Of a stretch of DNA of 35,832 nucleotides, positions 1 to 28,114 are shown piece after piece; within the stretch, counting starts at the first letter, position 1; each line of letters opens with the position of its first letter. The DNA comes from Lachnospiraceae bacterium (lineage in GTDB: Bacteria > Bacillota > Clostridia > Lachnospirales > Lachnospiraceae): assembly GCA_017635395.1 (NCBI GenBank), contig JAGBLN010000052.1, positions 1-35,832 on the forward strand. Direction: 5' to 3'. Made by a program: the position numbers and the translations under genes. Below the pieces are notes generated by a model. That model worked only from the letters and a program-made list of their open reading frames with translations, did not search any database and was not told the DNA's origin.

Positions 1-137
1 ACACGCTACATCCATGTAGCGTTGTTCACTCGTCCCGCCTTCCATGGCGGTCCGTTCCTGGTGTATTGTAGCATTTTCGAGAACTGCTAAGTCTCACTAA
101 AACACCGTCAGACAAGACTACACGGTGTGGGAAGTTT
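1..137. repeat. Family B structured repeat, copy B1 (cut by window edge)
   Basis: This is the right-hand part of a structured repeat that recurs at 27827-28053; the left arm lies outside the window. Seen directly: a perfect hairpin ACGCTACAT-CC-ATGTAGCGT at 3-22, a second hairpin CCGCC/GGCGG at 35-50, a conserved strip GCATTTTCGAGAACTGC at 71-87, and an end hairpin ACACCG/CGGTGT at about 102-128. The copy ends with GTGGGAAGTTT at 127-137, the same terminus used by the family A repeats. Identity to B2 is very high over this stretch, and the two differ partly in hairpin loops (ttccat versus atcctt). The last 30 bases are read as the C-terminal codons of the neighbouring gene, which suggests the element was inserted there. 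Confidence 0.85.
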
Positions 138-1580
138 TAGTATCTTACTAAAAGCCTTTTTTATATATGATCCGCAAAGCAGGTCAAACAGGCACGAATT
201 ACGCTTTATGGCAACATTATTCCTATATTCATTCATGTCAAATCTGTCAATATAGGTTTCCTTTAATCTTAGATCATTGTATTCTCTTACCGCGAAGTTA
301 TGATCCGTATGTCCGTTTTCAATAGCTTTCCCCAGTTGAGCCTCAAATTCTATTTCGGTTATCAGACTGTTTTCCAATACTTTTTCGCGTTTTCTCAGAT
401 ATTCATCATCTGTCAAAAGTTTATGTACATCTTCCGCCAGATCATCTTCCGAATAATATTCGATCTTTCTATCTTCCTGAGCGATCAGTATGCCTTCGCT
501 TTCATCATCGAATTTCAGTATCAGGGGAATTTTTCCCGCTGCAACAGCATATTGGGTCATTAGTCCGCCTATGATCGGATAAGTGTTGATATATATGGTT
601 ATGTTTTTCATAACCTGGTAAAGATCTTTTCTTTCGTCTATTTTATATGCCCTGCCCCTGTAATCCTTCAGCAGTTCATCCAATTCATCAGCCATTCCAC
701 ATCCGGCATACAAAAACAGAAGGTCATTGTTTTCATCAAGCAGTCTCTTTATCAGCCTATAGTATGTACTGTTCTCGTCTATTGTCTTGTATAAAGCCCC
801 TCCGCTAAAAAGTATCTTTTTACCTTCGGTATCAAAATCAAAACCTTTAAATTCTGTCTCTTTATCAATGTACGGATAAAAAGGCAGGCCGATCAGCTTC
901 TCCATATCAATGTTTCTATGATGTACGGAAATGCTTTTTCCATACCCCCTGAAATCAATATAATGATCGGCAGCACCTGTTCCAAGCCAAAAGGCGTGGT
1001 CTGTAAGATTGATAAAAAACCTCTTCACGATCCCCTCCAGCTGCATAAAGCACAGCAAACCTGCTGTGTCGTTGGGAAGTGAATAATAGAATGCAACGGA
1101 AGGCTCATGTTTTAGTATTATCTCCTGAAGTCCGGTTTGCTGTTTCACATACCGGTGCCTGAGATCCACATATTCTTTTATTGTATCCGTTCCGGCCAAT
1201 AAATTGTCTATTACAGGCTGGCCATCCTTTGAATGCAACGGGGATACATATATTATCTTATAATCCAGGCCAATCAGCGCCTTCAGATATACCAGTGCCA
1301 GTCCTCTTGTATCTGTTCCAAAGCCGTCGTAAAAAAGAATAGTCTTTTCTTTACCCTTGATCCCGGAAAACCTCTCATCAGCAGTTAATTCCGATAACAT
1401 TTCCATATACGACTCTAACCTGTCATCCTTATATGACTGATTGGATTCATATAACAATTCCCCACACGCAGATAATGCAGCTAACGCTCTTTCCAACTTG
1501 CCTGCCTTAATTGCCTGATCTATAACTTTACAATACCTGTCATATTCGGCATTTATAGTTTTAAGTTTATCCGTCTTCAT
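108..1580 (-). CDS. GT-B-like glycosyltransferase with element-derived C-terminus
   Basis: A 490-residue soluble protein with no signal peptide or membrane segment. The N-terminal 70 residues are helical; a Rossmann-like region follows (KTILFYDGFG near residue 80), and a second one starts at KKILFSGGALY near 255 with LLFLYAGCG near 290, as in GT-B glycosyltransferases. The strip TDHAFWLGTGAADHYIDFRG recalls the donor half of TPR-linked protein glycosyltransferases, but I cannot name the family. The start is ATG at 1580. The last nine residues, KLPTPCSLV, and the TGA are encoded by repeat B1, so the native C-terminus was probably replaced or extended. It is the last gene of the visible operon and looks more AT-rich than its neighbours. 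Confidence 0.7.
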   Translation of the reverse strand: MKTDKLKTINAEYDRYCKVIDQAIKAGKLERALAALSACGELLYESNQSYKDDRLESYMEMLSELTADERFSGIKGKEKTILFYDGFGTDTRGLALVYLKALIGLDYKIIYVSPLHSKDGQPVIDNLLAGTDTIKEYVDLRHRYVKQQTGLQEIILKHEPSVAFYYSLPNDTAGLLCFMQLEGIVKRFFINLTDHAFWLGTGAADHYIDFRGYGKSISVHHRNIDMEKLIGLPFYPYIDKETEFKGFDFDTEGKKILFSGGALYKTIDENSTYYRLIKRLLDENNDLLFLYAGCGMADELDELLKDYRGRAYKIDERKDLYQVMKNITIYINTYPIIGGLMTQYAVAAGKIPLILKFDDESEGILIAQEDRKIEYYSEDDLAEDVHKLLTDDEYLRKREKVLENSLITEIEFEAQLGKAIENGHTDHNFAVREYNDLRLKETYIDRFDMNEYRNNVAIKRNSCLFDLLCGSYIKKAFSKILKLPTPCSLV

Positions 1581-1596
1581 ATCGCACTTAAATACA

Positions 1597-2220: not shown

Positions 2221-2243
2221 ATATCTTCTCTCTGAAACGATCT

Positions 2244-4556: not shown

Positions 4557-4578
4557 TACCCTTTTTACCCAGATAATA

Positions 4579-4584
4579 ATTATA
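4579..4584 (-). promoter_or_regulatory. Possible -10 box upstream of the 4556 gene
   Basis: On the minus strand this reads TATAAT, 22 bases before the ATG at 4556, in one of the few intergenic gaps (76 bp) inside block 4. No convincing -35 box lies 16-18 bases upstream and there is no TG extension, so it may be chance in an AT-rich gap. Confidence 0.3.
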
Positions 4585-4632
4585 CCCTAATCAGTTGACG
4601 CCCACCACACTTGGAGCCCCGCCTGCTCTAGC

Positions 4633-5853: not shown

Positions 5854-5855
5854 TA

Positions 5856-7115: not shown

Positions 7116-7135
7116 TGCAGTTCATTGACCACTCT

Positions 7136-8071
7136 TTATACAAACTGCTTAAAATATTCAATAGTCTTATCCAGTCCCTTATCAAGAGGGATGGTAGGCT
7201 CCCAGTCAAGTTCCTTCTTTGCCAGGTCTATAACCGGCCTGCGCTGTATGGGATCATCAGAAGGCAGAGGCTTATAGACGATCTTTGAGCTGGATCCCGT
7301 TTTTTCAAGGACCATCTCGGCCAATTCTTTGATAGTAAATTCACCAGGGTTACCGATATTGACAGGTCCCGTGAAACCATCTCTTGAATTCATCAGCCTT
7401 ACCATACCTTCAATAAGGTCATCAACATAGCAGAAGCTCCTGGTCTGCGAACCGTCGCCATACACAGTTATGTCTTCCCCCCTGAGGGCCTGCATTATAA
7501 AATTCGAGACTACCCTTCCGTCTGCAGGATGCATATTTGGACCGTACGTATTAAAAATCCTCATTACCTTAATATCCACATTGTTCATTCTGTGGTAATC
7601 AAAGAAAAGGGTCTCAGCCACACGTTTGCCTTCGTCATAGCAGGATCTGATGCCTATGGTATTTACGCATCCCCTGTAGCTTTCAGGCTGTGGATGCACT
7701 TCAGGATCACCGTATACTTCCGACGTGGATGCCTGCAGTATCCTTGCATGAACCCTCTTTGCCAGTCCCAGCATATTCATGGCACCGAGCACGGAGGTCT
7801 TGGTAGTCTTTATAGGATTATACTGGTAATGAACCGGGCTGGCAGGGCAGGCCAGGTTATATATCTGGTCCACTTCAATAACAATGGGCACGGTGACGTC
7901 GTGCCTTATGAATTCAAAATAGGGATTGCCGATGAGATGCCTGATATTGTCCTTGGTACCCGTAAAGAGATTATCAAGGCAGATAACATCGTTGCCTTCC
8001 TCTATCAGCCTGTTGCATAAATGCGATCCCAGAAAACCTGCACCGCCTGTCACCAGTATTCTCTTACCCAT
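7136..8071 (-). CDS. UDP-glucuronate decarboxylase (UDP-xylose synthase)
   Basis: A 311-residue extended SDR of the UXS group, which converts UDP-glucuronate to UDP-xylose with NAD+ retained. The Rossmann motif TGGAGFLG is at 8-15, the active-site [15 protein letters not shown] at about 116-130, and catalytic Y145-x3-K149 in RSCYDEGKR. The later strips [19 protein letters not shown] and [16 protein letters not shown] are those of UXS rather than of a 4-epimerase. It is the only nucleotide-sugar enzyme in the window and implies xylose, or a sugar made from UDP-xylose, in the glycan. It is the first gene after repeat A1, with AAGGAG as ribosome site 41 bp from the repeat. Confidence 0.95.
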
Positions 8072-8112
8072 AGTATTTCTCCTTATTATCTAATTAATTT
8101 AGTTGTAAACCC

Positions 8113-8374
8113 AAACTTCCCACCTATAGTCTGTGGAAAGCCGAACGACGACTCGCATATGCGCCGGAACCGATGCAACGCCTCGGGAAACTAACCGCTA
8201 ACAGCCCGTAGTTATCCGTCACATGCAAGCCGGCATAAAGCGTACCGTCTTGCAGCCCTGCACCGGATAACAACGGGCTGTAAGCGCTGGATTTCCCCTC
8301 GGCTAAGGACGCATCGTGATTGTTCCGGTGCAATTGCGAGTGTCGTTCTGGCTAGTTCAGTGAGCGGGAAGTTT
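8113..8374. repeat. Family A structured repeat, copy A1
   Basis: A 262-bp non-coding element with inverted ends AAACTTCCCAC (8113-8123) and GCGGGAAGTTT (8364-8374), one mismatch. It folds as one rod. The outer arms 8143-8170 and 8322-8348 pair over about 25 bp with one bulge and one 2x2 internal loop; then come GATGC/GCATC, AGCCCGTAGTTATCCG (8203-8218) with CGGATAACAACGGGCT, and an apical GCAAG/CTTGC stem. The core (8171-8318) is nearly identical to copy A2. Its last base coincides with the last base of the stop codon of the 9225 gene. A 69-codon frame inside is not supported as coding, because A2 does not preserve it. No transposase and no clear target duplication was seen. Confidence 0.88.
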
Positions 8375-9225
8375 TATATTCCAAAAACTATCCTCACATA
8401 CGGTGTCACTGAGTGGTATATCGCTGACAGTACACCGTAGTTCTTTTTCACGAAATAATACCAATCTTTTGCAGGCAGTCCCTTGGGAGTTTCCTTCTTC
8501 ATTACACGTTCGAAAATCGGGAGCTCGGGGTCCTGCCAGCTGTCCTCTATGGGATTGGCTTCGCAGGTGCCCACATAGCCGGCACTGCTTATTACCTTGA
8601 GGCCTTTGCGCTTCATACGGAGGCCGTAGTCGTAGTCTCCCATGCTGTGGGTATAGTTACCATCAAGGTTTCCGTTCTTCTTCATGCACTCCAAAGACAT
8701 CAGCAGGCAGTTGCAGTTGAAGGTATCGCAAGGCACCGGCTTGTTTGTGGGCGGTATTACCTCAAATTTTGCAAAAAATTTCGATAAGGTCCTTACGCCT
8801 CCGTAAGTCTGTTCCCCGTTTTCAGAACAAACTGCGCCTACCACAGCCGCCACCCTGTAGCGTTTCCTTCTCTTCATCAGGGTATCAATGGAGTCCTCGT
8901 AAAAAACCACATCGTCATTTACCAGCAGTATATCATCACCGGGCTTAGCATGCTTTGCGGCATAGGACATGGCATAACGCATGCCCTGGTTCCAGTATAC
9001 ATTTTTTTTGCAGTGCAGTATCCTGAGACTGATATCCCGACTGCCATAGCGTCTGCTTTTCTTTGCATTCTCCATGCACTTTCTCAAATAGATACCCGTG
9101 CCGTCAATGCTCCCAGCATCTACATCCACTATTGTCATGGAACCCTTATAAGCACCCAGCAGGGACTTAAAACATTCCACCGTCTGCTCGCGTCTGTTGT
9201 ATGTAGTCATTAAAACCCAAAGCAT
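8374..9225 (-). CDS. Glycosyltransferase family 2
   Basis: A 283-residue GT-A enzyme. It opens with LWVLMTTYNRREQTVECF, has the nucleotide-sugar strip TIVDVDAGSIDGT near residue 31, and the metal-binding VNDDVVF at 102-108. A later D/E-rich strip MGDYDYGLRMKRKG resembles the catalytic ED region of rhamnosyl-type GT2 enzymes, but the sugar cannot be assigned. Cytosolic. A strong ribosome site (GGGGGA) stands 7 bp before the ATG at 9225. The stop codon is completed at the edge of repeat A1, so the C-terminus (VRIVFGI) may be native or trimmed by the insertion. Confidence 0.87.
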   Translation of the reverse strand: MLWVLMTTYNRREQTVECFKSLLGAYKGSMTIVDVDAGSIDGTGIYLRKCMENAKKSRRYGSRDISLRILHCKKNVYWNQGMRYAMSYAAKHAKPGDDILLVNDDVVFYEDSIDTLMKRRKRYRVAAVVGAVCSENGEQTYGGVRTLSKFFAKFEVIPPTNKPVPCDTFNCNCLLMSLECMKKNGNLDGNYTHSMGDYDYGLRMKRKGLKVISSAGYVGTCEANPIEDSWQDPELPIFERVMKKETPKGLPAKDWYYFVKKNYGVLSAIYHSVTPYVRIVFGI

Positions 9226-9252
9226 ACATTTTCCCCCTGTTCTGCCTGCATT

Positions 9253-10071
9253 TTAAAATCCTGCTATCTTCTTGTCCGTCAGATGGAAAAGCACCTTGCT
9301 CTCAAAATCCACTATGTCCTTGAGCCATGGCCATCCGTTTTTTTCTGCGCTGGCATATGCATGATATACATGCCTGCACCAGGATATATTCAGCTTATCT
9401 TTCCCTATTTCCTTCTGAAGCCTGTATACTTCCTTACGTCTCGCCGCATTGTTTAAGCCGGTCTTATTATCCTCATACATCCGGTAGACAGCATAAGGCT
9501 CATGGGTATACACCTTCCTGCCGGATGCAAACAGGCCTATGAAAAACTTCCAGTCGAAAACATAATGGTATTTTTCATCCAGAAGCTTATGTTCATTTTT
9601 CCAGAAGCAGGCAGGCTGCACTATGTAGTACCAGCGCCTTATCACGTCATCGGACACATTCCTGTCCGATTTATTGTACTCTGTAAATTTCTTATTCTTA
9701 TCACAGTACCAGGCATCTCCTATGGCAAGCTTTAACCCCTTGTTTTCAGTAAATACCTTGTCTACATTTTCAAGCACATGCTCGTCAAAATAAAAATCAT
9801 CCGAATTAAGCCACGCCACTATCTCGCCCTTTGCAAGGCGCAGACCCTTGTTTATGCCGTCAGCCTGGCCGCGATCCTTTTCACGAATATAACGTATCCT
9901 GCTATCCTTTGCAGCATAAGACTCCACGATCTCCTGCGTACCATCTTCAGAACAGCTGTCGATTATTATATACTCAAAATCCCTAAAGCTCTGGTTCAAT
10001 ACCGACTCAATGGTATCAGCGATATATTCAGCCTGTTCAAATGTAGGTGTTATTATTGAAAATCTGCACAT
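9253..10071 (-). CDS. Glycosyltransferase family 2 (WcaA-like)
   Basis: A 272-residue GT-A enzyme with the classic start FSIITPTFEQAEYIADTI, the VLNQSF strip, IIIDSCSEDGT at 36-45, the linker DRGQADGINKGL, and LNSDDFY with D91-D92 as the metal-binding pair. This subtype is common in capsule and O-antigen loci. There is no membrane segment. It is part of a close-packed run, 17 bp downstream of the KdsC-like gene and 27 bp upstream of the next GT2 gene. The donor sugar is not predictable. Confidence 0.9.
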   Translation of the reverse strand: MCRFSIITPTFEQAEYIADTIESVLNQSFRDFEYIIIDSCSEDGTQEIVESYAAKDSRIRYIREKDRGQADGINKGLRLAKGEIVAWLNSDDFYFDEHVLENVDKVFTENKGLKLAIGDAWYCDKNKKFTEYNKSDRNVSDDVIRRWYYIVQPACFWKNEHKLLDEKYHYVFDWKFFIGLFASGRKVYTHEPYAVYRMYEDNKTGLNNAARRKEVYRLQKEIGKDKLNISWCRHVYHAYASAEKNGWPWLKDIVDFESKVLFHLTDKKIAGF

Positions 10072-10088
10072 ATCAAATACCGTTGTCC

Positions 10089-10562
10089 TTACGCATTCCT
10101 CTCGCCTGATATGAGCCTTGCCAGCTCCCTTACCACGCCATAGCCGCCATTCTTTCCGGATACCCAGTCGGCAATCTCGAGTATCTCAGGCTCCGCATCC
10201 TTCGGTGCACCCTTTAATCCCACGCAGCCCATGGCATCTATATCATTTAAGTCATTACCGATATACATGACTTTATCTAAGCCCACAGCCTTTTCGGAGC
10301 AGAATTTCACAAGTGTTTCCTTCTTGTCTGACACGCCGTGTATCACTTCCAGCTTTAGCTTTTCAGCGCGCATCTCAACCACAGGATTAACCTCTGTCGA
10401 CAGGATCACCTGCTCAATGCCCAGCTTCCTTATCATGCCCACGCCGTAGCCGTCACCCCGGTTGGCCATGACGCTTTCGCGTCCGTCCTGGTCCACCATG
10501 ACCCTATTGTCCGTCATGACGCCGTCAAAATCATATACTATCAGTTCTATATTTTCAAACAT
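10089..10562 (-). CDS. KdsC-like HAD phosphatase
   Basis: A 157-residue capless HAD phosphatase of the KdsC group. Motif I is YDFDGVMTDN with D11 and D13, motif II is ILSTE near residue 54, and motif III/IV is YIGNDLNDIDAM near 100. Known relatives dephosphorylate KDO-8-phosphate or nonulosonate-9-phosphates, often beside a CMP-sugar synthetase. Here no synthase or cytidylyltransferase is present, so the partner must lie elsewhere or the substrate differs. The ATG is at 10562, 20 bp after the stop of the upstream GT-A gene. The family call is firm; the substrate is unknown. Confidence 0.88.
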   Translation of the reverse strand: MFENIELIVYDFDGVMTDNRVMVDQDGRESVMANRGDGYGVGMIRKLGIEQVILSTEVNPVVEMRAEKLKLEVIHGVSDKKETLVKFCSEKAVGLDKVMYIGNDLNDIDAMGCVGLKGAPKDAEPEILEIADWVSGKNGGYGVVRELARLISGERNA

Positions 10563-10582
10563 ATGCGGATATCCCCTGACTA

Positions 10583-11497
10583 TTAGAATATATGAAGCTT
10601 TTTCTTCACAGCCTCCATAAATTTCTTAGTTCCATAATATTTTCTGATATACGCCTTATCGTATTCAGTGTCACGGCGTATAGTCTTTCTCTTTTTCATA
10701 GGAAAACGCATTTTTCCATATGAAAAGTCTTCCTCACTGTGCCAGTTAGTATGCGTGGCGTCTTCCCTGTCAAAGCCTATATTGCGTATCATATTCACAG
10801 CCGGAACAATGCCCAGGCCGCCATGGGTATGCCTGCAGTAGTCCCACTGTATATCCCATGTATCCTTTTTGTGTGTATAAACACTGTTTACATGCTTCTT
10901 GATAAACATATATGGCAGGCCGCTCTGGACTTTCTTAAGCTCGCCTTTTTTCTTTACTTCAGGCCAAGTCTTAACATCCGGGTCATAGTACTTCCAGGCC
11001 CTTGCCCAGGTAGCCCATCCCCATATGCTTGAAAAGCAGGAGAAAGTATATGCACCTTTTACTTTCTGCCCCTTAAGCAGATTAGTGCCGGATACCATCA
11101 TTACCTTTTTGTCATTCTTATATAATTCTAAAAGCTCATCACAATACCTGAAAAATTCCGGCGCAGGCACCACATCATCTTCCAATATAATGGTATGGGG
11201 TTCCTGAGAGAGCACCCAGCTGATTCCAGTGTGCATCCGCTCTTTGCAGCCCATGTTCTCCTCTGCGTAATTCTTTTTGAACTCACAAGGCCAGTCTATA
11301 TGGGACTCCACATACTCGCGGCACTCTTTAACCTTATCTATGTCATCAGGCCTTCCCTTACGGGGAGCATCCGATACCAGATAAAACCTTGAAGGCCTTG
11401 CCTTCCTGATCTCTTCAAAAACTTCCTTTGTTGTGTCCGGTCTGTTGAACACTATCATCATCACAGCCGTTTTTAACTTATAAACTTCTTCGCTCAT
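10583..11497 (-). CDS. GT-A glycosyltransferase-like protein
   Basis: A 304-residue protein of the nucleotide-diphospho-sugar transferase type often found in O-antigen loci. The nucleotide-binding strip AVMMIVFNRPDTT starts it, IILEDDVVP (about 105-113) carries the DD pair, and SSIWGWATWARAW with WDIQWDYCRHTHGG gives a tryptophan-rich acceptor side. I prefer the ATG at 11497, which overlaps the TGA of the upstream gene by one base; a GTG three bases earlier is also possible (305 residues). AAAGGG lies upstream as ribosome site. The overlap implies translational coupling to the initiating transferase gene. Confidence 0.8.
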   Translation of the reverse strand: MSEEVYKLKTAVMMIVFNRPDTTKEVFEEIRKARPSRFYLVSDAPRKGRPDDIDKVKECREYVESHIDWPCEFKKNYAEENMGCKERMHTGISWVLSQEPHTIILEDDVVPAPEFFRYCDELLELYKNDKKVMMVSGTNLLKGQKVKGAYTFSCFSSIWGWATWARAWKYYDPDVKTWPEVKKKGELKKVQSGLPYMFIKKHVNSVYTHKKDTWDIQWDYCRHTHGGLGIVPAVNMIRNIGFDREDATHTNWHSEEDFSYGKMRFPMKKRKTIRRDTEYDKAYIRKYYGTKKFMEAVKKKLHIF

Positions 11498-12921
11498 CAC
11501 TTTGAACCCTTTCCGAATAAAACCACTCCCACTGTCTGCAAGATTATCTTGCAGTCAAGCAGGAGGGACCACTGGTCTATATACTCAAGGTCAAGCCTTA
11601 CTACTTCATCAAAATCCGTTATGTCACTGCGTCCGCTGACCTGCCACATTCCCGTAAGTCCCGGTGTAATAGACAGACGCCTTCTGTAATGCGCATTGTA
11701 TTTCTCGTACTCATCTACTGTGGGAGGCCTTGTTCCCACCATGGACATATCCCCTTTCAGGATATTAAAAAACTGGGGCAGCTCATCTATGCTGGTCTTC
11801 CTAAGGAACCGGCCAACCTTAGTTATCCGGGGATCGTCCTTCATCTTGAACATCAGGCCGTCCATCTCATTTTTATCATAGAGATCTTTTTTTCTTTCTT
11901 CCGCATCCACATACATGGATCGGAACTTATACATCATGAATTTCCTGCCGCCTCTGCCTACTCTCTCCTGTCTAAAGATCACAGGCCCTTTGGACTCAAA
12001 CTTTATTGCCAGGGCCACAAAGGGAAAGAAAAACAAAAGGATCAGGATTCCGAAAAGGCTCCCGATGATATCAAAGAAACGCTTCACCATCAGCCGTCTG
12101 TAATCCAGGTTCTTTAAGGAAAAGGAAAGCACCGGGTATCCCGCTATGTCATCCGCTTCCTTGCCTTCCAGATTAAGTTCCTCAAGCCCAATGTCGTAGT
12201 GGCAGAGCACCCCCATGCTCTCAAAGTCGAATATCATATTTCTGATAGTATTTATGGGCACTTCCCTGGGCAGTGAGATAAACACACGGTCAACAACTTC
12301 CTTAGTGGCCACTTCAAGCATATTTGCCGAGTCACCAACCACCTTAACACCTTCAATCTCACGTCCCACCATATCCGCATCAGTAATTATAAGGCTCTTA
12401 ACCTCATAATTCCATTCATTGGAATTAATGAGCTTCCTTATTATCTCTGCAGCACGGTCCTTTGTAGTCACCACCATAAGCTTGTCACTGTCAGCACCGT
12501 TCCTGTAGCATTTCAGCATATACTCCTTGAATATAAGATGACAGGAAAAGGTTATCAGTACACTCAGCAATATAAAGAAAAAAAGTACGGTTCTTGAAAT
12601 GGGACGGTCCTTAAATACCGTATACATCACAAGCGCCGGCATAGCTATTGTAACAGCAAGACATTTTATTATGGCGACAGTTTCCTTGAAAATGCCCCGG
12701 ATAAAAAAGTCCCGATTCCAGTCTGTGAAAATGCTGTACAGCAGCAGGAACAGAACGTAGAGCCCGCCAAAACTTATATAAAGTTCATAGTGGCCGTCAC
12801 AGTACAGATTCCTGTAACGGATCAGGACAGCCAGCATAAGGGCAGCCACCCCTGACAGAACCTCTATCAGGATCAGCCCGTATGTTTTTATGACATTGCT
12901 CTTTTTATAAATCTTGTTCAT
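11497..12921 (-). CDS. Initiating phosphoglycosyltransferase (WcaJ/ExoY/CpsE type)
   Basis: A 474-residue polyprenyl-phosphate hexose-1-phosphate transferase, the enzyme that starts the repeat unit on undecaprenyl phosphate. Four N-terminal membrane helices (about residues 12-120), a CoA-binding-like Rossmann domain (about 145-250), one further hydrophobic helix near 280-305, then the catalytic domain: FRQERVGRGGRKFMMYKFRSM, LRKTSIDELPQFFNILKGDM, GTRPP, and ITPGLTGMWQVSGRS. All hallmark residues of the family appear to be present. The usual substrate is UDP-glucose or UDP-galactose; the exact sugar cannot be read. Its presence marks this as a lipid-linked repeat-unit pathway. Confidence 0.95.
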   Translation of the reverse strand: MNKIYKKSNVIKTYGLILIEVLSGVAALMLAVLIRYRNLYCDGHYELYISFGGLYVLFLLLYSIFTDWNRDFFIRGIFKETVAIIKCLAVTIAMPALVMYTVFKDRPISRTVLFFFILLSVLITFSCHLIFKEYMLKCYRNGADSDKLMVVTTKDRAAEIIRKLINSNEWNYEVKSLIITDADMVGREIEGVKVVGDSANMLEVATKEVVDRVFISLPREVPINTIRNMIFDFESMGVLCHYDIGLEELNLEGKEADDIAGYPVLSFSLKNLDYRRLMVKRFFDIIGSLFGILILLFFFPFVALAIKFESKGPVIFRQERVGRGGRKFMMYKFRSMYVDAEERKKDLYDKNEMDGLMFKMKDDPRITKVGRFLRKTSIDELPQFFNILKGDMSMVGTRPPTVDEYEKYNAHYRRRLSITPGLTGMWQVSGRSDITDFDEVVRLDLEYIDQWSLLLDCKIILQTVGVVLFGKGSK

Positions 12922-12929
12922 TAAACGTC

Positions 12930-13931: not shown

Positions 13932-14006
13932 TCAAATCCTCTAAATCGAATCAACGCTTCTTTATGTCTTAACCGGTGAGTGCCTCTAACCAACACAAAC
14001 CGGTAA

Positions 14007-15032: not shown

Positions 15033-15047
15033 CAGCCGTAACGCACC

Positions 15048-16304
15048 TTATTTTTTCTGCAAGTCATGGATAGAAGGCACCCACTTAAGAAAAGGCACGC
15101 TGTGTATCCCATGCATGATGCTTCTTATCCGCTTATTGTTGTTGTCCATATTTGCCACCGGCTTTCTGTAGGCTGCCTTCTTTCCTTCAGACACCTCGGA
15201 GATCAATCTCTTCCATTCAGGAATCAGGAGCCCTGGCCTGAAACCATTAAGGGCAAATTCCATGGCATTCCTTGAAAAAGTTTCACGCTTTGTATCATCC
15301 GTCAAAAGTTCAGCAAGCTTACCAGGAAACTCGCTTATGTCTTTATACAATGATCCCGTTTTTCCGTCCATAACGGAATCGCACAGGCCGTTCTTCCTGC
15401 GGCATACCACCGGAAGCCCGCAGGCCTCCATCTCTACTGCCGCCAATCCGAAAGTTTCAGTGGCCATAGGATTTATTACGCCTATGCTGCACTTCCTGAA
15501 CACGTCATATTTCTCTGCGCCAAGTATTCCATGAAAACGAACATTAGGAAGTATCTCTCCCTTTTCATCCGTAAGCCACCTCATGAACTCCTGTTCATAA
15601 GACTCTTCTGCCAGACCATACTTCCCGAGCTTTGCATTTTCATCATAAAGCCTGCCGGTACCTATCACGTCAAGACCTGCTTCAGGCACCTTTCCCCTGA
15701 CTTTGCTCCAGGCTTCAGCCAGCATGTGGAAATTTTTGTCCGGTATAAGGCTGCCCATATAGGCTATGGACTTTTCCCTGCTGACGTCATTTTTCTTTAT
15801 ATCCTGTACCAGATCCTCCGGCATGATGAAAGGATTATTTATATAATCCATTTTTTCAATCACTGCATCATCAATATACAGATCATACATCTCACGGCAG
15901 ACCGCTATCACGCGCTTAACTTTTTTCTCTGCCGAAAAGAGCCTTATTTCCGGATATGTCAGCCTGTTATGCATCCAGAAGACATAATTAAGCTCATAAT
16001 TCCCCAGGATAGCGTATACCTGATCATCCTGATGGTTACGGAGTATAACCGTCTTTCCGCCGTCAGCCTGCGCTTTTGATAATGCATCTTCGACAGATTC
16101 AGCCTTTATCACATTATCGCAGTGCAGCTTTACATTCTGCACGGAATATACGCTGACAGTATTCCCAGCATCCTCTGACAGATACTTAATTATTATGGCA
16201 AAGCAGTAAGCCGTGCCTCCTACGCCAGGATTTCCCAGCTCCGGCATGGACAGGTCCTTGCCCTCAGTCTCCGGTTCATGAAATATAAATCTAAAATCAG
16301 GCAT
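15048..16304 (-). CDS. Glycosyltransferase family 4-like
   Basis: A 418-residue GT-B protein. The N-terminal domain has the glycine-rich NPGVGGTAYCFA loop near residue 26 and an FWMHNRL strip near 128. The donor domain has YMGSLIPDKNFHMLAEAW near 190 and TETFGLAAVEMEACGLPVV near 285, with the family 4 acidic pair. The shape (leader FRFIFHEPETEG) is common in capsule loci. No membrane segments. It follows the SDR gene by 9 bp and therefore shares a transcript with the ACP/dehydratase/reductase genes. Confidence 0.85.
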   Translation of the reverse strand: MPDFRFIFHEPETEGKDLSMPELGNPGVGGTAYCFAIIIKYLSEDAGNTVSVYSVQNVKLHCDNVIKAESVEDALSKAQADGGKTVILRNHQDDQVYAILGNYELNYVFWMHNRLTYPEIRLFSAEKKVKRVIAVCREMYDLYIDDAVIEKMDYINNPFIMPEDLVQDIKKNDVSREKSIAYMGSLIPDKNFHMLAEAWSKVRGKVPEAGLDVIGTGRLYDENAKLGKYGLAEESYEQEFMRWLTDEKGEILPNVRFHGILGAEKYDVFRKCSIGVINPMATETFGLAAVEMEACGLPVVCRRKNGLCDSVMDGKTGSLYKDISEFPGKLAELLTDDTKRETFSRNAMEFALNGFRPGLLIPEWKRLISEVSEGKKAAYRKPVANMDNNNKRIRSIMHGIHSVPFLKWVPSIHDLQKK

Positions 16305-16313
16305 GATGATCCC

Positions 16314-17042
16314 TTATCCCAAAGTTGCGCATCTATTCTCGCCGTTCTCAGCATATCCTGACGACAGCATTTCATCGAATACTTCCACAAGATCCTCCGG
16401 CGTCATAAGACGGCCCTTCTGATACACAGCCATCTCCTTTATCCTTGGATCCATATTCTTCAAAAAAGAAGTATCCATCATATCCGGGGAGATTCCGTTT
16501 ATCATAAGCTTTCCCCCGCCATACTCGGCAGCAGCAGCCTTCATGGCGCCAAGCAAGGCATATTTTGCCACGATATAATCAGTCATGAATTTCGGAGGCA
16601 GGTCATCAGCCACATACTTAGTAAGCATGACCAAAGCCCTTGCACCTTCCGTCTTCTTCATATCAGGGAAGAATTCTGATGCAAGCATCAAAAAACTCTC
16701 TGCCTGTATCCTGAAAGACTCTTCCACCCTGCTATTATCCAGGTCTTTCAGCCTCATATAAGAAAAAGCAGGGGCCGGCAGGAACAAAAACTTTTCCGGC
16801 ACCCTGCCAGTATCCCGTATATCCTTTATGAGCTTCTCCGTCTCAGACAAATCCGAAAGGTCAGCCTTGAACACCCTTATATCTAATTCCGGAAACTCCG
16901 TCTTTATGGCATCAAACTTTTCCGGCCTTCCGAAACAATGGGCAAGAATGCACAAGCCTTCTTCCTTCTTCCCTGCCAGATGCCTTATGTATGTGCTCCC
17001 CACATCTGAAGATGCACCGATCACTAGATAAGTATTGCTCAA
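16314..17042 (-). CDS. SDR-family oxidoreductase (ketoreductase-like), TTG start
   Basis: A 242-residue classical short-chain dehydrogenase. The cofactor loop GASSDVG spans 9-15, DLSDL lies at 61-65, and the catalytic pair is Y156-x3-K160 in DYIVAKY; the expected active-site serine position is near VMLTKY (138-143), so threonine may stand in. Such enzymes reduce keto groups on carrier-bound acyl chains or sugars. It overlaps the MaoC-like gene by 4 bp (TTGA), and the start is TTG with AGGA just upstream; no in-frame ATG lies nearby. With ACP and dehydratase upstream, an acyl-ACP reductase role is the best inference. Confidence 0.82.
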   Translation of the reverse strand: MSNTYLVIGASSDVGSTYIRHLAGKKEEGLCILAHCFGRPEKFDAIKTEFPELDIRVFKADLSDLSETEKLIKDIRDTGRVPEKFLFLPAPAFSYMRLKDLDNSRVEESFRIQAESFLMLASEFFPDMKKTEGARALVMLTKYVADDLPPKFMTDYIVAKYALLGAMKAAAAEYGGGKLMINGISPDMMDTSFLKNMDPRIKEMAVYQKGRLMTPEDLVEVFDEMLSSGYAENGENRCATLG

Positions 17043-17458
17043 CTTTCCTGTACTCCCGCAGTTATCATTGCCTGCGACACTTTCTGTCCGTCCTGATTCA
17101 CTATCACGGCTTTTATCCTGATGGTCCTTACCGCTTCATGCACCTCTTCGACGGTTCCCATTACCGTCAGCACATCGCCGATATACACCGGATTATGGAA
17201 CCTCGACTTCACCTCATGCAGGATGCAGTGCTCACCCGGAAGGTACACGCCTGCAAGCCTTGAGTAAAATGACGAAGTAAGCATCCCGTAAACAAGCCTT
17301 CCTTTACAGCCATGCTTCTTTGCATAGTCCTCATCTATATGCATGGGATTTATATCTTCACTGATCTCAGTGAATTTATCCTGCATCGCCTCCGTAACCT
17401 CTACGGTGAAGGACTCCGTCATGCCAATGGTAAGCTCTGAAATAGTATAATGGTTCAT
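17039..17458 (-). CDS. MaoC-like hot-dog dehydratase
   Basis: A 139-residue single hot-dog domain of the MaoC / R-specific enoyl hydratase group. The catalytic D-x4-H is D35 to H40 in SEDINPMHIDEDYA, followed by GRLVYGMLTSSFYSRLAG, the conserved substrate-side helix. Relatives add or remove water between 3-hydroxyacyl and 2-enoyl thioesters on CoA or ACP. It sits 2 bp after the ACP gene and overlaps the SDR gene, which points to an ACP-bound substrate. No ketosynthase accompanies it, so chain elongation is not its context here. Confidence 0.92.
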   Translation of the reverse strand: MNHYTISELTIGMTESFTVEVTEAMQDKFTEISEDINPMHIDEDYAKKHGCKGRLVYGMLTSSFYSRLAGVYLPGEHCILHEVKSRFHNPVYIGDVLTVMGTVEEVHEAVRTIRIKAVIVNQDGQKVSQAMITAGVQES

Positions 17459-17460
17459 AT

Positions 17461-17703
17461 TCAGGATACCGCCTTTTCGATGATATCGAGCATTTCGCCG
17501 ACATTCTTCATTCCAACTACATCCTTCATCTGAAACTTCATACCGAAGGCGGACTCGATCTCTGATATGAGAGTGATATGCATAAGGGAATCCCAGTCCT
17601 CTACATCGTCAGCAGTGGTAGACTCCACTACTACTATGCTGTCATCATCAAAAACATCATGAAAAACATCATTCACCTTACCAAGGATTTCTTCTCTGCT
17701 CAT
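17461..17703 (-). CDS. Acyl carrier protein
   Basis: An 80-residue acidic carrier protein. The 4'-phosphopantetheine site is S39 in EDWDSLMHITLISEIE; WDSL rather than the DSLD of fatty-acid ACP is typical of dedicated carriers paired with FkbH-like or D-alanyl ligase-like enzymes. The start ATG (17701-17703) has a strong GGAGGG site (17709-17714) 5 bp upstream. It is the first gene of block 3 behind an apparent promoter at 17748. The likely partner, the FkbH-like enzyme, lies just across repeat A2. Confidence 0.95.
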   Translation of the reverse strand: MSREEILGKVNDVFHDVFDDDSIVVVESTTADDVEDWDSLMHITLISEIESAFGMKFQMKDVVGMKNVGEMLDIIEKAVS

Positions 17704-17747
17704 GCCGTCCCTCCGTACTATCTGCGTATAGTTTCCATAACTGAAAT

Positions 17748-17756
17748 ATTATAGCA
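17748..17756 (-). promoter_or_regulatory. Extended -10 promoter before the ACP gene
   Basis: On the minus strand this reads TGCTATAAT, a consensus -10 box with TG extension. It lies 45-53 bases upstream of the ACP start and downstream of repeat A2. The -35 region is poor, as allowed for extended -10 promoters. If it is active, the ACP-to-8374 block is a separate or additional transcript. Confidence 0.6.
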
Positions 17757-17819
17757 TATATTAACGTTATTGGCTATTATGCATTATTTGGATGGCCATA
17801 TGGTGTAAAACAGATTATT

Positions 17820-18085
17820 AAACTTCCCACATTCAGTTTCTTTAAGCAGGACGGTCACTCTCACCTGTTTGGGAACCGATGCAACGCTTCGGGAAACTAA
17901 CCGCTAACACCCCGTAGTTACCCGTCGCATGCAAGCCAACACAGAAAAGCGTGTGTTGTCTTGCAGCCCTGCACCGCGTAACAACGGGCTGTAAGCACTG
18001 GATTTCCCCTCGGCTAAAACCGCATCGTGACTGTTCCCAACAGGTTCGAGTGCCGTCCTGTCAAATTTTTGTGAGTGGGAAGTTT
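17820..18085. repeat. Family A structured repeat, copy A2
   Basis: A 266-bp element with perfect 11-bp inverted ends AAACTTCCCAC (17820-17830) and GTGGGAAGTTT (18075-18085). Its outer arms, 17847-17876 and 18033-18060, pair with nearly the same layout as in A1 (stem, one-base bulge, stem, 2x2 loop, stem) although the sequence differs: GGGAAC/GTTCCC here against CCGGAAC/GTTCCGG in A1. The apical stem is CAACAC/GTGTTG instead of CGG/CCG, inside the same GCAAG/CTTGC frame. The core from 17877 to about 18030 is nearly identical to A1. Together with a promoter, it occupies the 436-bp gap between the FkbH-like and ACP genes. Confidence 0.9.
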
Positions 18086-18139
18086 ATTTTAAGTGACTGA
18101 AAATACCCAATGTAGCCCCATCTGACGCTGTAACGTGAT

Positions 18140-19867
18140 CTAACGGTGTAGGTCGGCTATATACGTATCCCTTACCTGATACTCCTCCACCTTGCAGACA
18201 TACTTGCCGGGTTCGGTCTCGGTAAAGCCTTTTTCTTTATAGATGTCCTTGACCATAGAGTTCTTGGCTGTAGGAAGGTATTCGGCGCGGATTTCATTGA
18301 AGCCACTGGATTTGGCCGTGGAGACGATGGTGTTTACGATATAGTCTTCCATGGTACGCTTGAGGACACGGCAGCTCATAAGCCATGTATCCACGAAGGC
18401 ATAGCCCTCTTCCTTCTTCATTATGACCACGCTTACCAGACCGTGGTCGCCGAAGCGGTCCTTAAGGGTGAAATATAGAGTGATATAGGAGTCGTCATTG
18501 GCTAGAGCCTCTATCTCCTCCTGGGTATAGCGGACGGTCCTAAGATTGAACTGGTTGGAGCGCTGGGTAAGCTGCGCGATCCTGGGATAGTGGAATTTGT
18601 CAAAAGGACCGGCATATGCCTCCATCTGAAGGTCCTTCAGATAGTCCTCGTAGCTTCCGAAACTTTCCCTGACCTTGGTGCGCTGGGCCTCTGCCCTGTA
18701 CTGGTCTGTCCTTCCTGCATCCTCTGCACTGAAAGCAACTGTTTCAAAGAGATTCAAGCCCTTTAGGTAATTCAGGTACTCCGCAGGATCCTCAGGCAGC
18801 TCAGGAACTGTAATATCTGGTATAAGCTCACGCACCAGGTTCCTTTCAAAAGGATTGTCGTCAATAAATACAAAACTGTCCATTCCAAGATTCAGAGTTT
18901 CACGGATATTTTTTATGTTAGAGGCCTTGTCTTCCCAGTTTGCGACAAAACATGCTATGTCTTCCAAGCGAAGCACCATCTCGGGATGCTTTTCAAAAGG
19001 CTCCTTTGCCTTGTCCTCATCATTCTTGCTGCAAACCGCAAGCAGTATGCCGCGCTTCTTCAGTTCCTTAAGCCAGACCTGGAATTCCTGAAATGCCCTT
19101 CCTATGCCCAATTCACCTACCTGTATTCCTTCCAGTCCGTCATCACCTACTACACCACCCCAGAGGGTATTGTCCAGGTCAAGGATTACGCATTTCTTTA
19201 TGCTTCCACGCATTGCCCCGATCACTTTCATGATCTCTTCTGCAATATCAGGAATGATCTCCGTAGAATAAGGCATTCTGGCAGCGAAATAGAGCTTGCT
19301 GTCGCAGAACTTTTCCACACCCACACGGCTCTGTAATGAATTAAGGTCTATAATGTAAACTCCGGGGTGCTTTGAAGCCTCCTCCATCAGCATCAGGTTA
19401 AGTTTTCTCTGTTGGAAAATAAATGAAGCCTCTATGGAATTTGCATAATTTCCGAATACCCGGTCATCCCTTTCGGGGAAATTGAACTGAAGGACTTTGC
19501 ATTTTGCACTGCTTAAAAGCATCTCCCAGTATCCGGCTATCTGATCAGCTTTGTCACCTGCAAAGCTCTTCCTGTCCTCCATAGACAGGCTGCAAAAATC
19601 CGCATAGAGCCTTTCCGTACACATGTCTATGAGCACAGCTTCAGGCCTGCTTTCATAAAGTTCAGATGAAGGATCGGTTATCTGTGCCCTTATCTCATCA
19701 TAATCCGCATCAAATACGAACATATGAAGGCCATGCTCATATGCCGCTCCTGCCACAGCCGCCGCAAGATGCTGGGTGGCACAGTCCCCGGTTATAGCCA
19801 GCTTTATCTCCGGCAATCCGCTCATGTCTTTTTTCAGATTTTTTTTCAGCTCGATAAAAGTGCTCAT
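18140..19867 (-). CDS. FkbH-like HAD / glyceryl-ACP synthase
   Basis: A 575-residue FkbH-type protein. An N-terminal domain of about 200 residues begins at IKLAITGDCATQ; a HAD domain follows with KKCVILDLDNTLWGGVVGDDG near residue 220, LLAVCSKNDEDKA and FVFIDDNPFER; the C-terminal part is GNAT-like (DRFGDHGLVSVV, SCRVLKRTMED, LPTAKNSMVKDIYKEKGF). Characterised FkbH enzymes take 1,3-bisphosphoglycerate, dephosphorylate it and load glyceryl on an ACP. I choose the ATG at 19867: GAGG stands 8 bp upstream, and the longer frame to 19930 would overlap the MBOAT gene by 53 bp. The acyl acceptor ACP is the gene at 17703. Confidence 0.92.
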   Translation of the reverse strand: MSTFIELKKNLKKDMSGLPEIKLAITGDCATQHLAAAVAGAAYEHGLHMFVFDADYDEIRAQITDPSSELYESRPEAVLIDMCTERLYADFCSLSMEDRKSFAGDKADQIAGYWEMLLSSAKCKVLQFNFPERDDRVFGNYANSIEASFIFQQRKLNLMLMEEASKHPGVYIIDLNSLQSRVGVEKFCDSKLYFAARMPYSTEIIPDIAEEIMKVIGAMRGSIKKCVILDLDNTLWGGVVGDDGLEGIQVGELGIGRAFQEFQVWLKELKKRGILLAVCSKNDEDKAKEPFEKHPEMVLRLEDIACFVANWEDKASNIKNIRETLNLGMDSFVFIDDNPFERNLVRELIPDITVPELPEDPAEYLNYLKGLNLFETVAFSAEDAGRTDQYRAEAQRTKVRESFGSYEDYLKDLQMEAYAGPFDKFHYPRIAQLTQRSNQFNLRTVRYTQEEIEALANDDSYITLYFTLKDRFGDHGLVSVVIMKKEEGYAFVDTWLMSCRVLKRTMEDYIVNTIVSTAKSSGFNEIRAEYLPTAKNSMVKDIYKEKGFTETEPGKYVCKVEEYQVRDTYIADLHR

Positions 19868-19875
19868 GATCATTA

Positions 19876-21311: not shown

Positions 21312-21312
21312 T

Positions 21313-22674: not shown

Positions 22675-22680
22675 TTACAC

Positions 22681-24835: not shown

Positions 24836-24839
24836 CCGT

Positions 24840-25991: not shown

Positions 25992-27805
25992 CAGTTACCG
26001 TCCTCCGCAACCGCATTCTCTATCTCTTCATAAGCGGAACGGATCACTTCTTCCTTATCCCGCTTAACAGCATGTCCGTCCTTTATCTCGAATATCTCAT
26101 CACAGTTCCTGATGGTAGTCAGTCTATGGGCAACGATTATCATGGTCTTAACCCCGTGCAGGGAATCGATTGCTTCCATAACGGCGGTCTCAGTCTCCGT
26201 ATCTAGAGCACTGGTAGCTTCATCCAGCACGAGTATGGAAGGATTCTGGTAAAGCGCTCTGGCTATGGCTATCCTCTGGCGCTGACCTCCGGAAAGCCTT
26301 ACGCCTCTCTCACCTACCATTGTATCCAGTCCGTCATGCAGGTGCTTTACGAAATCTGCTAACTGTGCCTCTTCAAGCGCACGCCATACTTCCGCCTCAT
26401 CAATCTGGTCCTCATATATGCCGAATGCCACATTATTCCTTATGGTGTCATCAGTAAGATACACCGTCTGGGGAACATAGCCGATTATCCTTGCCCACTT
26501 TGGAAGGTTTTCATATATGTCAGTTCCATCGGACATAACATGTCCTTCCTGGGGCTTTAACAGACCAAGTATTACATCCGCAAGAGTTGTCTTTCCCGCA
26601 CCGGACGGACCGATGAACGCAACCGAACTTCCCTTCTTTATGGTCATGGACAAATGCTCAAGGACATTTTCATCCCCGGCAGGATATTTCATATTGATGT
26701 TATCTACTACAAGCTCTTTTTCGAATTCCAGGGGAACAAAGTTTGACTCATCGATATGCTTTACCCTGTACATCTCAGTTTCTTCAAGGAGCTTCAGCAT
26801 ATCGTAAGTGGAATCAAGCCTTGGCTTATTGTAAAGAACGGAGTTCATGGCATTAGTAAGACGGCCCACAGCAGGGAAAAGCCTGAAAGCCGCAACAGCA
26901 ACGATTGCAACCTTTGTCAGCATCTCCGAAACATCCTCTGAGCTGTTGATCCTGAGTACTACTATGCCTATGAGTCCACCTACACAGGCTATCTCGTAAA
27001 TATACGAAGGGATGCTGTTCAGGAAACCGTTACGCCTCATGGTTCTTGAGCTTATGGTGCAGGCTTCTTCAAAACTTTGTGAAAAGTACTCCTGTCTGTT
27101 CATTACCATTATCTCTTTTATGCCATTGAAGGCCTGGTTAAGGTACTGGTACATCTTTGTGTCATACTCTGCACCGATCCTTCCGAATTTCTTTATCAGG
27201 CCTTTCAGTCCGAAGAAGATCAGAAGCATGCAGGAGCCCAGTATGGCTGCCAGGGAAAATGCAAGCACAGGATCCAAGGTTACCAGGTAGATGGTTATCG
27301 CCAGCACTGTAAAGGATTCTGCGAATATGCGGAAAAGATGGAGAAACAGTGCAAAAACACCGTCCACGTCCTGACGGATGCTCCTTATCAGAAGGGATGA
27401 GTTAACGCCCAGGTGAAAAAGATATGAGCTGTTCATATATGCCTTTTCCATCTTTATGGAAAGGTCCCGCTGCACAGTGGTGGAGTACCAGGACTGCACA
27501 TAGGATGAAAACATGAGATACAGGTTCTTTACGATGAAAACGATGATTATCAGCACACCAAAAACAGTAACGGTTTTGGTCTGGCTATCGAAATAGATAT
27601 AACGGGCTACGATCTGATAATACCATGTATTTACCAGATCATCCGGCATCATAACTGACTGGATGAAGGGCAGGACCGCTGAGACACTTATCAGCTCACA
27701 AAATGAGCCGACCAAGGCTACCAGCATTACAAAGATGTATTGGAGCTTCTGCTTTGATGTCATCACATAATGTATTTTTGTCAGTATGTCTGAGATGCTC
27801 TTCAT
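25991..27805 (-). CDS. ABC exporter / lipid-linked glycan flippase (PglK/MsbA type)
   Basis: A 604-residue half-transporter with a six-helix N-terminal exporter domain (about 20-320) and a nucleotide-binding domain: Walker A GPSGAGKTT near 400, Q-loop GYVPQTVYLTDDTI, signature LSGGQRQR near 505, Walker B ILVLDEATSALD near 525, and the switch histidine in IIVAHRLTTI. Single-chain exporters of this kind flip lipid-linked oligosaccharides (PglK, WlaB) in loci without Wzx, and no Wzx is seen here. It is the first gene after repeat B2, with AAGAGG before the ATG. It is clearly paralogous to the gene ending at 34192. Confidence 0.93.
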   Translation of the reverse strand: MKSISDILTKIHYVMTSKQKLQYIFVMLVALVGSFCELISVSAVLPFIQSVMMPDDLVNTWYYQIVARYIYFDSQTKTVTVFGVLIIIVFIVKNLYLMFSSYVQSWYSTTVQRDLSIKMEKAYMNSSYLFHLGVNSSLLIRSIRQDVDGVFALFLHLFRIFAESFTVLAITIYLVTLDPVLAFSLAAILGSCMLLIFFGLKGLIKKFGRIGAEYDTKMYQYLNQAFNGIKEIMVMNRQEYFSQSFEEACTISSRTMRRNGFLNSIPSYIYEIACVGGLIGIVVLRINSSEDVSEMLTKVAIVAVAAFRLFPAVGRLTNAMNSVLYNKPRLDSTYDMLKLLEETEMYRVKHIDESNFVPLEFEKELVVDNINMKYPAGDENVLEHLSMTIKKGSSVAFIGPSGAGKTTLADVILGLLKPQEGHVMSDGTDIYENLPKWARIIGYVPQTVYLTDDTIRNNVAFGIYEDQIDEAEVWRALEEAQLADFVKHLHDGLDTMVGERGVRLSGGQRQRIAIARALYQNPSILVLDEATSALDTETETAVMEAIDSLHGVKTMIIVAHRLTTIRNCDEIFEIKDGHAVKRDKEEVIRSAYEEIENAVAEDGN

Positions 27806-27826
27806 TTGAAAATCCTCTTGTTTTTA

Positions 27827-28053
27827 TTCTCAGCACCGGTAGCTTGCCTGACGGTGGTGCCGTTCGCCAAGCAGTTCTTACGGAAATGCCATCATCAGTG
27901 CAATCCGTCCGGAACCGTTCACACGCTACATCCATGTAGCGTTGTTCACTCGGCCCGCCATCCTTGGCGGTCCGTTCCTGGTAAGTCTATGCATTTCCGA
28001 AAACTGCTAAGGCTCACTTAAACACCGTCAGACAAGTCTACACGGTGTGGGAA
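27827..28053. repeat. Family B structured repeat, copy B2
   Basis: A 227-bp imperfect palindrome filling most of the 309-bp gap between the ABC exporter and GT2 genes. Long-range pairing is visible: CGGAAATGC (27881-27889) with GCATTTCCG (27991-27999), then GCAGTT with AACTGC, and the outer ends 27827-27842 with about 28040-28053. The head carries the perfect hairpin ACGCTACAT-CC-ATGTAGCGT (27923-27942) and CCGCC/GGCGG (27955-27970). Each end also forms its own small hairpin (CACCG/CGGTG type). The right end is GTGGGAA followed by AACA, so the shared AGTTT terminus is degraded here. It ends 21 bp before the ABC start codon. Confidence 0.88.
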
Positions 28054-28114
28054 AACATGTACTACCGATTTGCTCAACATACAGCAGTCACAGAACTCAC
28101 ACTTTGCATAATCT

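What the first reader, a model, noticed from the sequence alone, without database searches (positions are those of the whole stretch)
1..28053. Two families of structured repeats divide a polysaccharide operon into 8-10 kb blocks
Non-coding repeats lie at 1-137 (B1), 8113-8374 (A1), 17820-18085 (A2) and 27827-28053 (B2), giving gene blocks of about 8.0, 9.4 and 9.7 kb in the order B-A-A-B. All surrounding genes run on the minus strand, and the two copies of each family have the same orientation relative to transcription. Every complete copy sits at a gene junction, 21-116 bp before a start codon. This could be an RNA that acts within very long glycan transcripts, by analogy with the EAR antitermination RNA of Bacillus eps operons, or RNA processing or stability sites, or insertion elements tolerated only at junctions, or recombination points for exchanging gene blocks. 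I do not recognise either family as a named RNA or element.
Basis: partly seen in the sequence, partly recalled or inferred. Interest (0 to 1): 0.88.

Follow-up and report, generated by a model that had tools for sequence, protein, structure and literature searches.

The report
Mobile hairpin repeats between operon genes
The repeats in this sugar-polymer operon are small hairpin-forming mobile elements scattered through the genome rather than dividers of the operon; one kind contains an RNA family of unknown function, and copies at sites shared by related species change unusually slowly for jumping DNA.

Summary
The repeats are real. B is Rfam RF01731 (TwoAYGGAY); A matches no Rfam family. They do not divide the operon. 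Both families are scattered through the genome in both orientations. Intact copies of both end in the 12-bp inverted repeat CTAAAACTTCCC of a 1.6-kb insertion sequence with an IS4-family transposase. Young copies carry exact 7-bp target duplications, and both insertions tested have uninterrupted sites in sister species. The same operon in three sister species carries other elements at the same junctions: the A1 site holds A in sense, mini-A or A in antisense, or mini-B, and strain AB2028 has nothing at the A2 and B2 sites. The elements are therefore MITE-like (compare ERIC, RUP, Correia repeats), not an EAR-type operon RNA. Two results stay notable. TwoAYGGAY also sits in a second MITE-like family with different ends. 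And at sites shared by two species TwoAYGGAY changed less than its mainly coding flanks (12 of 12 sites, 6.0% against 15.4%; 10 of 10, 6.2% against 12.8%, without two doubtful ones), in either orientation. That suggests a host role after insertion, although the window's own B2 shows it only weakly.

The parts
8113..8374 (-). A1: full-length A element, 262 nt, long imperfect hairpin
   Evidence: 293.5 bits with model R1, which was built from copies including this one
17820..18085 (-). A2: full-length A element, 266 nt
   Evidence: 248.5 bits with R1, also one of its source rows
27827..28053 (-). B2: TwoAYGGAY element with decayed ends; Rfam match 27857-28022
   Evidence: 88 bits, cut-off 43; no intact terminal repeat found
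1..137 (-). B1: 5' part of a TwoAYGGAY element, cut by the contig end; its 5' end AAACTTCCC is at 129-137
   Evidence: 53.2 bits, 3' end cut off
8113..8121 (.). A1 terminal inverted repeat, one arm (partner 8366-8374)
8366..8374 (.). A1 terminal inverted repeat, other arm
17819..17830 (.). A2 terminal inverted repeat, one arm (partner 18075-18086)
18075..18086 (.). A2 terminal inverted repeat, other arm

Best explanation
A and B are non-autonomous, palindromic, MITE-like transposable elements of a Lachnospiraceae genus. Shown here: intact copies of both families end in the inverted repeat of an IS4-family insertion sequence present in this genome and in sister genomes; young copies carry 7-bp target duplications; two insertions tested have uninterrupted sites in relatives; copies lie between genes in either orientation; the same operon in sister species carries different elements, or none, at the same junctions. 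Inferred: the IS4-family transposase moves them in trans into AT-rich gaps, selection removes insertions inside genes, and transcripts that run through carry long hairpins. The window's A1, A2 and B2 are old copies without target duplications, and their 8-10 kb spacing is accidental. Also inferred, less surely: many settled copies have an orientation-independent role as hairpins, in RNA (processing, stability) or in DNA, because they change more slowly than the DNA beside them.
For: Shared ends of A and B; AAACTTCCC 51 times against 6 for the control word; insertion sequences with the same ends, transposase NF049925 IS4 family, 560 and 577 bits, cut-off 250. Target duplications: A, 6 exact of 30 copies with both ends, cross-pairs 3 of 870; B, 2 exact and 1 with one mismatch of 30 looked at; second set of ends, 3 exact of 8, cross-pairs 0 of 56. 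Uninterrupted sites. Scatter and orientation. Different occupancy in sister species. Slow change at shared sites.
Against: The window's own A1 and A2 have no target duplication, and B2 has neither ends nor duplication. Most B copies looked at have decayed ends. Movement in trans was not observed. No transposase was found for the second set of ends. Strong covariation in A and slow change at shared sites are more than a dead MITE should show. In the species with IS-type B, B follows a co-directed gene at 15 sites against 4 (p=0.019, uncorrected, one of seven groups), and the six B-type pieces of the G026 operon are all in sense.
Confidence: 0.92

Rival explanations
1. The elements are dead, neutral MITE copies with no host role; slow change at shared sites comes from biased sampling, conversion between copies, or an odd mutation rate in palindromes.
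For: Both members of a pair had to be recognised by a model. The window's B2 pair (16.9% against 19.1%, p=0.29) and one other B pair (p=0.09) show little; three A pairs in G013/G033 are near equal; the A1-site pair is reversed because it compares a full with a deleted form. AB2028 does without elements at A2 and B2.
Against: Several pairs differ by 1-3 bases in about 165 while flanks differ by 6-11%, and such pairs keep features that other copies lack. Matches lie well above the cut-off, so moderately changed copies would still be found.
Confidence: 0.4
2. The elements are cis-acting RNAs of long operons that modify RNA polymerase, as EAR or the LoaP-dependent dfn hairpin do.
For: A loaP gene exists in the genome (129.1 bits, cut-off 125). 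Elements are frequent in this operon, all four in sense in the window, and the six B-type pieces of the G026 operon are in sense. A has covarying structure.
Against: Mixed orientation and many kinds of neighbours; A in antisense at the A1 site in G026 and G003, and no element at A2 and B2 in AB2028; no EAR match; elements lie between genes, not in leaders.
Confidence: 0.04
3. TwoAYGGAY is an RNA that binds and titrates CsrA (proposed in PMC4333381, passages read).
For: CsrA is encoded in 29 of 35 genus genomes; such a trans role would not depend on orientation.
Against: No association: 5 of 6 genomes without a CsrA match have TwoAYGGAY (G019, 11 copies, and G031, 9 copies, both 99-100% complete), against 21 of 29 with CsrA. 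My loop census was too crude to use.
Confidence: 0.05
4. The elements are recombination points for exchanging gene blocks of the operon.
For: Copies are long and alike, and contigs often end in them, the window included.
Against: The operon is collinear in G026, and the stretches examined in AB2028 and G003 keep the same order, with no block exchanged at an element. Not tested beyond these.
Confidence: 0.03

Closest known systems
TwoAYGGAY RNA, Rfam RF01731 (Weinberg 2010, PMC2864571, table passage read)
   Same: B1 and B2 match it over the curated cut-off; many copies in Lachnospiraceae.
   Different: Described as a probable RNA, not cis-regulatory, host range human gut and Clostridiales; the passages I read do not call it mobile. 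Here its copies are cores of elements with terminal repeats and target duplications. Family A does not match it.
RUP and BOX repeats of Streptococcus pneumoniae (PMC3049150, passages read)
   Same: Small structured intergenic repeats with terminal inverted repeats, target duplications and proposed movement by an insertion sequence; terminal repeats pair with each other in the folded form.
   Different: Other sequences, sizes and host; RUP is linked to IS630-Spn1, these to an IS4-family element. Conservation at shared sites was not compared.
Correia and ERIC elements (PMC10969869, passages read)
   Same: MITEs that are carried in transcripts and fold; Correia transcripts are cut by RNase III.
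   Different: Other sequences and hosts; no RNA processing was tested here.
EAR/epsC RNA and the LoaP-dfn hairpin (PMC2864571, PMC12691694, passages read)
   Same: Structured RNA in long biosynthetic operons; loaP occurs in this genome.
   Different: Those are leader elements. These lie between genes, in both orientations and in many gene contexts. A UNCG hairpin was not looked for.

Membership tests
MITE of an IS4-family insertion sequence | terminal inverted repeat identical to that of an insertion sequence in the same genome | tested here: met
   A1, A2 and B1 (5' end) carry AAACTTCCC; IS ends; B2 does not keep it
MITE of an IS4-family insertion sequence | target-site duplication, for the families | tested here: met
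   A 6 exact of 30, cross-pairs 3 of 870; B 2 exact of 30
MITE of an IS4-family insertion sequence | target-site duplication, for the window copies themselves | tested here: not met
   A1 and A2 have 4 and 5 mismatches of 7; B2 has no ends; B1 is cut
MITE of an IS4-family insertion sequence | uninterrupted site in a relative | tested here: met
   two insertions tested, both found; A2 and B2 sites lack elements in AB2028
MITE of an IS4-family insertion sequence | movement by the transposase in trans | not testable with these tools
   needs an experiment
TwoAYGGAY RF01731 | score over the curated cut-off | tested here: met
   B2 88 bits, B1 53.2 bits, cut-off 43
TwoAYGGAY RF01731, for family A | score over the curated cut-off | tested here: not met
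   no match of A1 or A2; no match in five loci with A copies
EAR-type operon RNA | match to a known family, sense orientation, biosynthetic operons | tested here: not met
LoaP target hairpin | UNCG hairpin in the leader of the operon | not tested
   the start of the operon lies beyond the window; loaP itself is present
CsrA-titrating RNA | co-occurrence with CsrA | tested here: not met
   21 of 29 genomes with CsrA and 5 of 6 without it have TwoAYGGAY

The most novel reading that the evidence does not exclude
TwoAYGGAY and A are structural modules carried by mobile palindromes. TwoAYGGAY rides in at least two element families with different ends (CTAAAACTTCCC and GATTCGGGTGTCAAAAGG), both with 7-bp target duplications. 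Once settled, the modules come under strong purifying selection in either orientation, so transposition spreads ready-made, orientation-independent hairpin functions (RNA processing or stability, or DNA hairpin sites) through Lachnospiraceae genomes.
Probability: 0.35. Interest if true: 0.78.

Novelty: new variant of a known kind. Interest (0 to 1): 0.52.

Why it matters
It offers a physical explanation of an orphan Rfam family: in this genus TwoAYGGAY copies are cores of transposable elements, so their covariation and scatter need not mean a regulator of the genes next door. It also warns that covariation searches can pick up palindromic mobile DNA. And it gives a clean system for asking how mobile hairpins become useful: the same junction in four species carries A in either orientation, B, deleted forms or nothing, while many settled copies change more slowly than nearby coding DNA.

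Tried and rejected
Rejected: EAR-like operon RNA (orientation, context, junctions without elements in AB2028); glycan-operon specificity; CsrA titration (no association); block exchange (collinear operons). Intrinsic terminator: no terminator-like site inside A1, A2, B1 or B2, but that scan takes only loops of 3-8 and so tests long bulged hairpins poorly.

Led nowhere: an autonomous insertion sequence with the second set of ends (ends found; no partner element with a transposase recognised by eye among the ORFs, no family search made); the census of ANGGA loops (too crude); the BLAST filter (all 57 places passed, so it removed nothing); A in phage records (no match); the insertion sequence in plasmid records (one short match in a Selenomonas transposase); paper searches for MITE with Lachnospiraceae (nothing on the subject) and for structured RNA with MITE and Rfam (none).
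Full report
OBSERVATION. Neither A1 nor A2 is hit at E up to 10 in 7900-18300, and five loci holding A copies match only a nearby tRNA at E up to 1. The operon runs on the minus strand and encodes glycosyltransferases, a sugar transferase, an epimerase, ABC exporters, FkbH, MBOAT and an acyl-carrier module.

A IS A LONG IMPERFECT HAIRPIN. A1 and A2 fold to -142.7 and -135.2 kcal/mol (no shuffled control). In nine long copies of the own genome 29 of 89 pairs have a change on both sides (shuffles: mean 11.8, 0 of 500 as high; slid versions 3-4) and 96.0% of cells are paired. The structure was derived from that same alignment, which favours it over slid versions. Helix 1, the terminal repeats, shows no compensation; most lies in helices 2, 6 and 7.

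SCATTER AND ENDS. The assembly (2.10 Mb, 58 contigs, 72.6% complete) has 13 BLAST places of A on 11 contigs and 7 TwoAYGGAY, plus deleted forms. Intact A and B elements end alike, (C)TAAAACTTCCCAC ... GTGGGAAGTTTTA(G). AAACTTCCC occurs 51 times in the genome, the control word 6 times.

THE INSERTION SEQUENCE. Three such ends near contig ends (L048, L050, L056) lead into a longer element; in L056 it interrupts an ORF that I read, by eye, as an ABC transporter. The transposase fragment from L056 matches 7 of 60 genomes, the own one included; the matches in G034, G036 and G046 are weak and contain stops. A complete 1.58-kb element lies in G026 (L067) and a relative in G032 (L068), with the same ends except one mismatch at one end of L068. 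Their proteins have DDE_5 and DDE_Tnp_1 domains and score 560 and 577 bits with NF049925, IS4 family transposase, cut-off 250. The three genomes richest in A (G026, G000, G003) carry this element or, in G003, a fragment of a related transposase; G032 has it, and B, but no A.

TARGET DUPLICATIONS. I took 57 A places, leaving out three partial ones (L128-L130). Of these, 30 have both ends with at most 2 mismatches; 6 have exact 7-bp duplications outside CTA/TAG, one more has one mismatch; cross-pairs are exact in 3 of 870. The window's A1 and A2 have none. Of 30 B copies, most with decayed ends, two (L034, L179) are exact and one (L183, an orthologue of L034) has one mismatch.

UNINTERRUPTED SITES. 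Joined host flanks of two insertions (L089 of G026 and L136 of G003, two of five prepared) were searched in six genomes. L089: G003 matches across the junction (1-441, 98%), and G034 does so over 138-441. L136: G026, G000 and G034 match across the junction. In the alignments, G003 has one target copy with one mismatch for L089, and G026 has one exact copy for L136, followed by a 20-base gap; my junction alignment found nothing for G000 and is gapped for G034.

THE OPERON IN SISTER SPECIES. Window 5.3-35.8 kb is collinear with G026:C22 at 82-86% identity in the long pieces. By equal contig length G026 is UBA4364, G034 is AB2028 and G003 is MAG CAMOJK. Occupancy, window / G026 / AB2028 / G003: near 33.0 kb none / B / mini-B / none; B2 site B / B / none / a B fragment and another hairpin; near 22.7 kb none / B piece / none / B piece; A2 site A / B / none / B; near 10.1 kb none / B piece / none / none; A1 site A in sense / mini-A in antisense / mini-B / A in antisense, split by about 100 bases. 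In a tree of 28 B copies the window's B2 falls with the subfamily that has intact ends (forks 87/86 and 84/88, moderate) and not with its positional counterpart in G026. Spacing, family and orientation at these junctions are therefore not conserved. Against this reading, the six B-type pieces in the G026 operon are all in sense.

ORIENTATION AND NEIGHBOURS. Gene calls here are plain ORFs. A, 57 copies: aa 19, sa 13, ss 9, as 9, 7 one-sided, none inside a gene. TwoAYGGAY: 135 copies, taken by score and by hand from the 200 genus matches, merge to 106 sites: ss 36, aa 23 (p=0.12), 2 inside ORFs; upstream gene sense 53 to 43 (p=0.36). In the group with the IS-type ends it is 15 to 4 (p=0.019, uncorrected, one of seven groups). 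Neighbours: 91 of 112 B neighbours hit 200 Pfam families, at most 6 members in one (glycosyltransferase 2; window genes included); 86 of 174 A neighbours hit 175, at most 4 in one. I left out 20 weaker A loci and dropped other orthologous or short pieces by hand.

DISTRIBUTION. A: 10 of 35 genus genomes, the weaker ones with other ends; 2 of 295 drawn from the order, the own genome included. TwoAYGGAY: 26 of 35 and 22 of 295, 18 over the cut-off, 18 of the 22 with more than one match. The order scans used stricter filters and few scored candidates, so they are lower bounds. In G018, G011, G008 and G015 the TwoAYGGAY hairpin sits between other ends, GATTCGGGTGTCAAAAGG. Of 8 elements with both of these ends 3 have exact 7-bp duplications and one a single mismatch, against 0 of 56 exact cross-pairs; 6 of the 8, and 2 of the 3 exact ones, carry the TwoAYGGAY loop.

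SLOW CHANGE AT SHARED SITES. Sites with both flanks alike in two species were compared, the most diverged pair of each cluster. B: the element changed less than 400+400 nt of flank in 12 of 12 clusters (sign p=0.0005; pooled 6.0% against 15.4%), 9 of them with p<0.02 singly, one at 0.09, one at 0.29 (the window's B2: 16.9% against 19.1%) and one at 0.011 included in the nine. Two clusters (G017/G032) come from paired copies at one kind of locus with poorly alignable flanks; without them it is 10 of 10, 6.2% against a mean of 12.8%. ORFs cover 57-94% of the flanks in the 10 clusters, 40-76% in the other two. Clusters in sense (ss), antisense (aa) and convergent (sa) settings all show it, but numbers are small. 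A: 7 of 8 (p=0.07; 6.0% against 8.9%). The exception is the A1 site, where G003 has a full and G026 a deleted form; three G013/G033 pairs are near equal. A mini-A without the core is also steady (2 of 106 against 11%). Both members had to be found by a model, a bias. I read the result as probable selection after insertion; conversion between copies is not excluded.

OTHER HYPOTHESES. CsrA is found in 29 of 35 genomes; TwoAYGGAY is in 21 of those and in 5 of the 6 others, among them G019 (11 copies) and G031 (9). The CsrA idea is from PMC4333381 (passages). A LoaP gene is present (129.1 bits, cut-off 125), but the elements do not behave like leader RNAs (PMC12691694, passages).

PRIOR WORK. TwoAYGGAY occurs in 7 papers of the library, 5 listed. 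I read passages of PMC2864571, PMC4333381 and PMC11701678; none of these passages calls it mobile. The closest kinds are RUP/BOX (PMC3049150, passages) and Correia/ERIC (PMC10969869, passages). The searches showed no earlier report of the link in their listings; most subscription papers are not in the library.

VERDICT. As a kind, the elements are MITE-like, which makes the finding largely ordinary. New here are family A, the mobile setting of TwoAYGGAY with two sets of ends, and the unexpected constancy of many settled copies.

Noticed in passing
L040:4993-5081 (G000:C38), beside the loaP ORF that begins at L040:5060 as called: An 89-bp stretch with the same kind of inverted ends (one mismatch) lies at the start of the loaP gene.
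   Followed up: partly
L056 from 613 (G000:C58:39712): A copy of the IS4-family insertion sequence interrupts an ORF that looks, by eye, like an ABC transporter.
   Followed up: no
L315 about 9700-9970 (G003) and window about 28054-28105: A further long hairpin sits at the B2 site in G003; the window's sequence just before B2 resembles its 5' arm, perhaps a third hairpin family (by eye).
   Followed up: no
G017:C11, G017:C123, G032:C213, G032:C326, G031:C23, G031:C62, G019:C65: TwoAYGGAY copies occur as divergent pairs (minus then plus) about 115-130 nt apart.
   Followed up: no
window 17748-17776, minus strand: A promoter-like site with an extended -10 (10 of 12 matches) lies between A2 and the acyl-carrier gene, and TGCTATAAT is also present in G026 and AB2028; such sites are not commoner than chance in this region.
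   Followed up: partly
window 108-137: The last bases of ORF 108-1580 are made of B1 sequence, so the insertion supplies the end of that reading frame.
   Followed up: no
G000 contigs C2, C6, C7, C45, C53, C57: Several contigs end in or near TwoAYGGAY elements, so the assembly, the window included, is broken by them and copy numbers are too low.
   Followed up: partly
G026:C22 about 61-93 kb: Elements are crowded in this operon (seven places in about 33 kb). Perhaps operons under antitermination tolerate hairpin insertions better; this is a guess.
   Followed up: no
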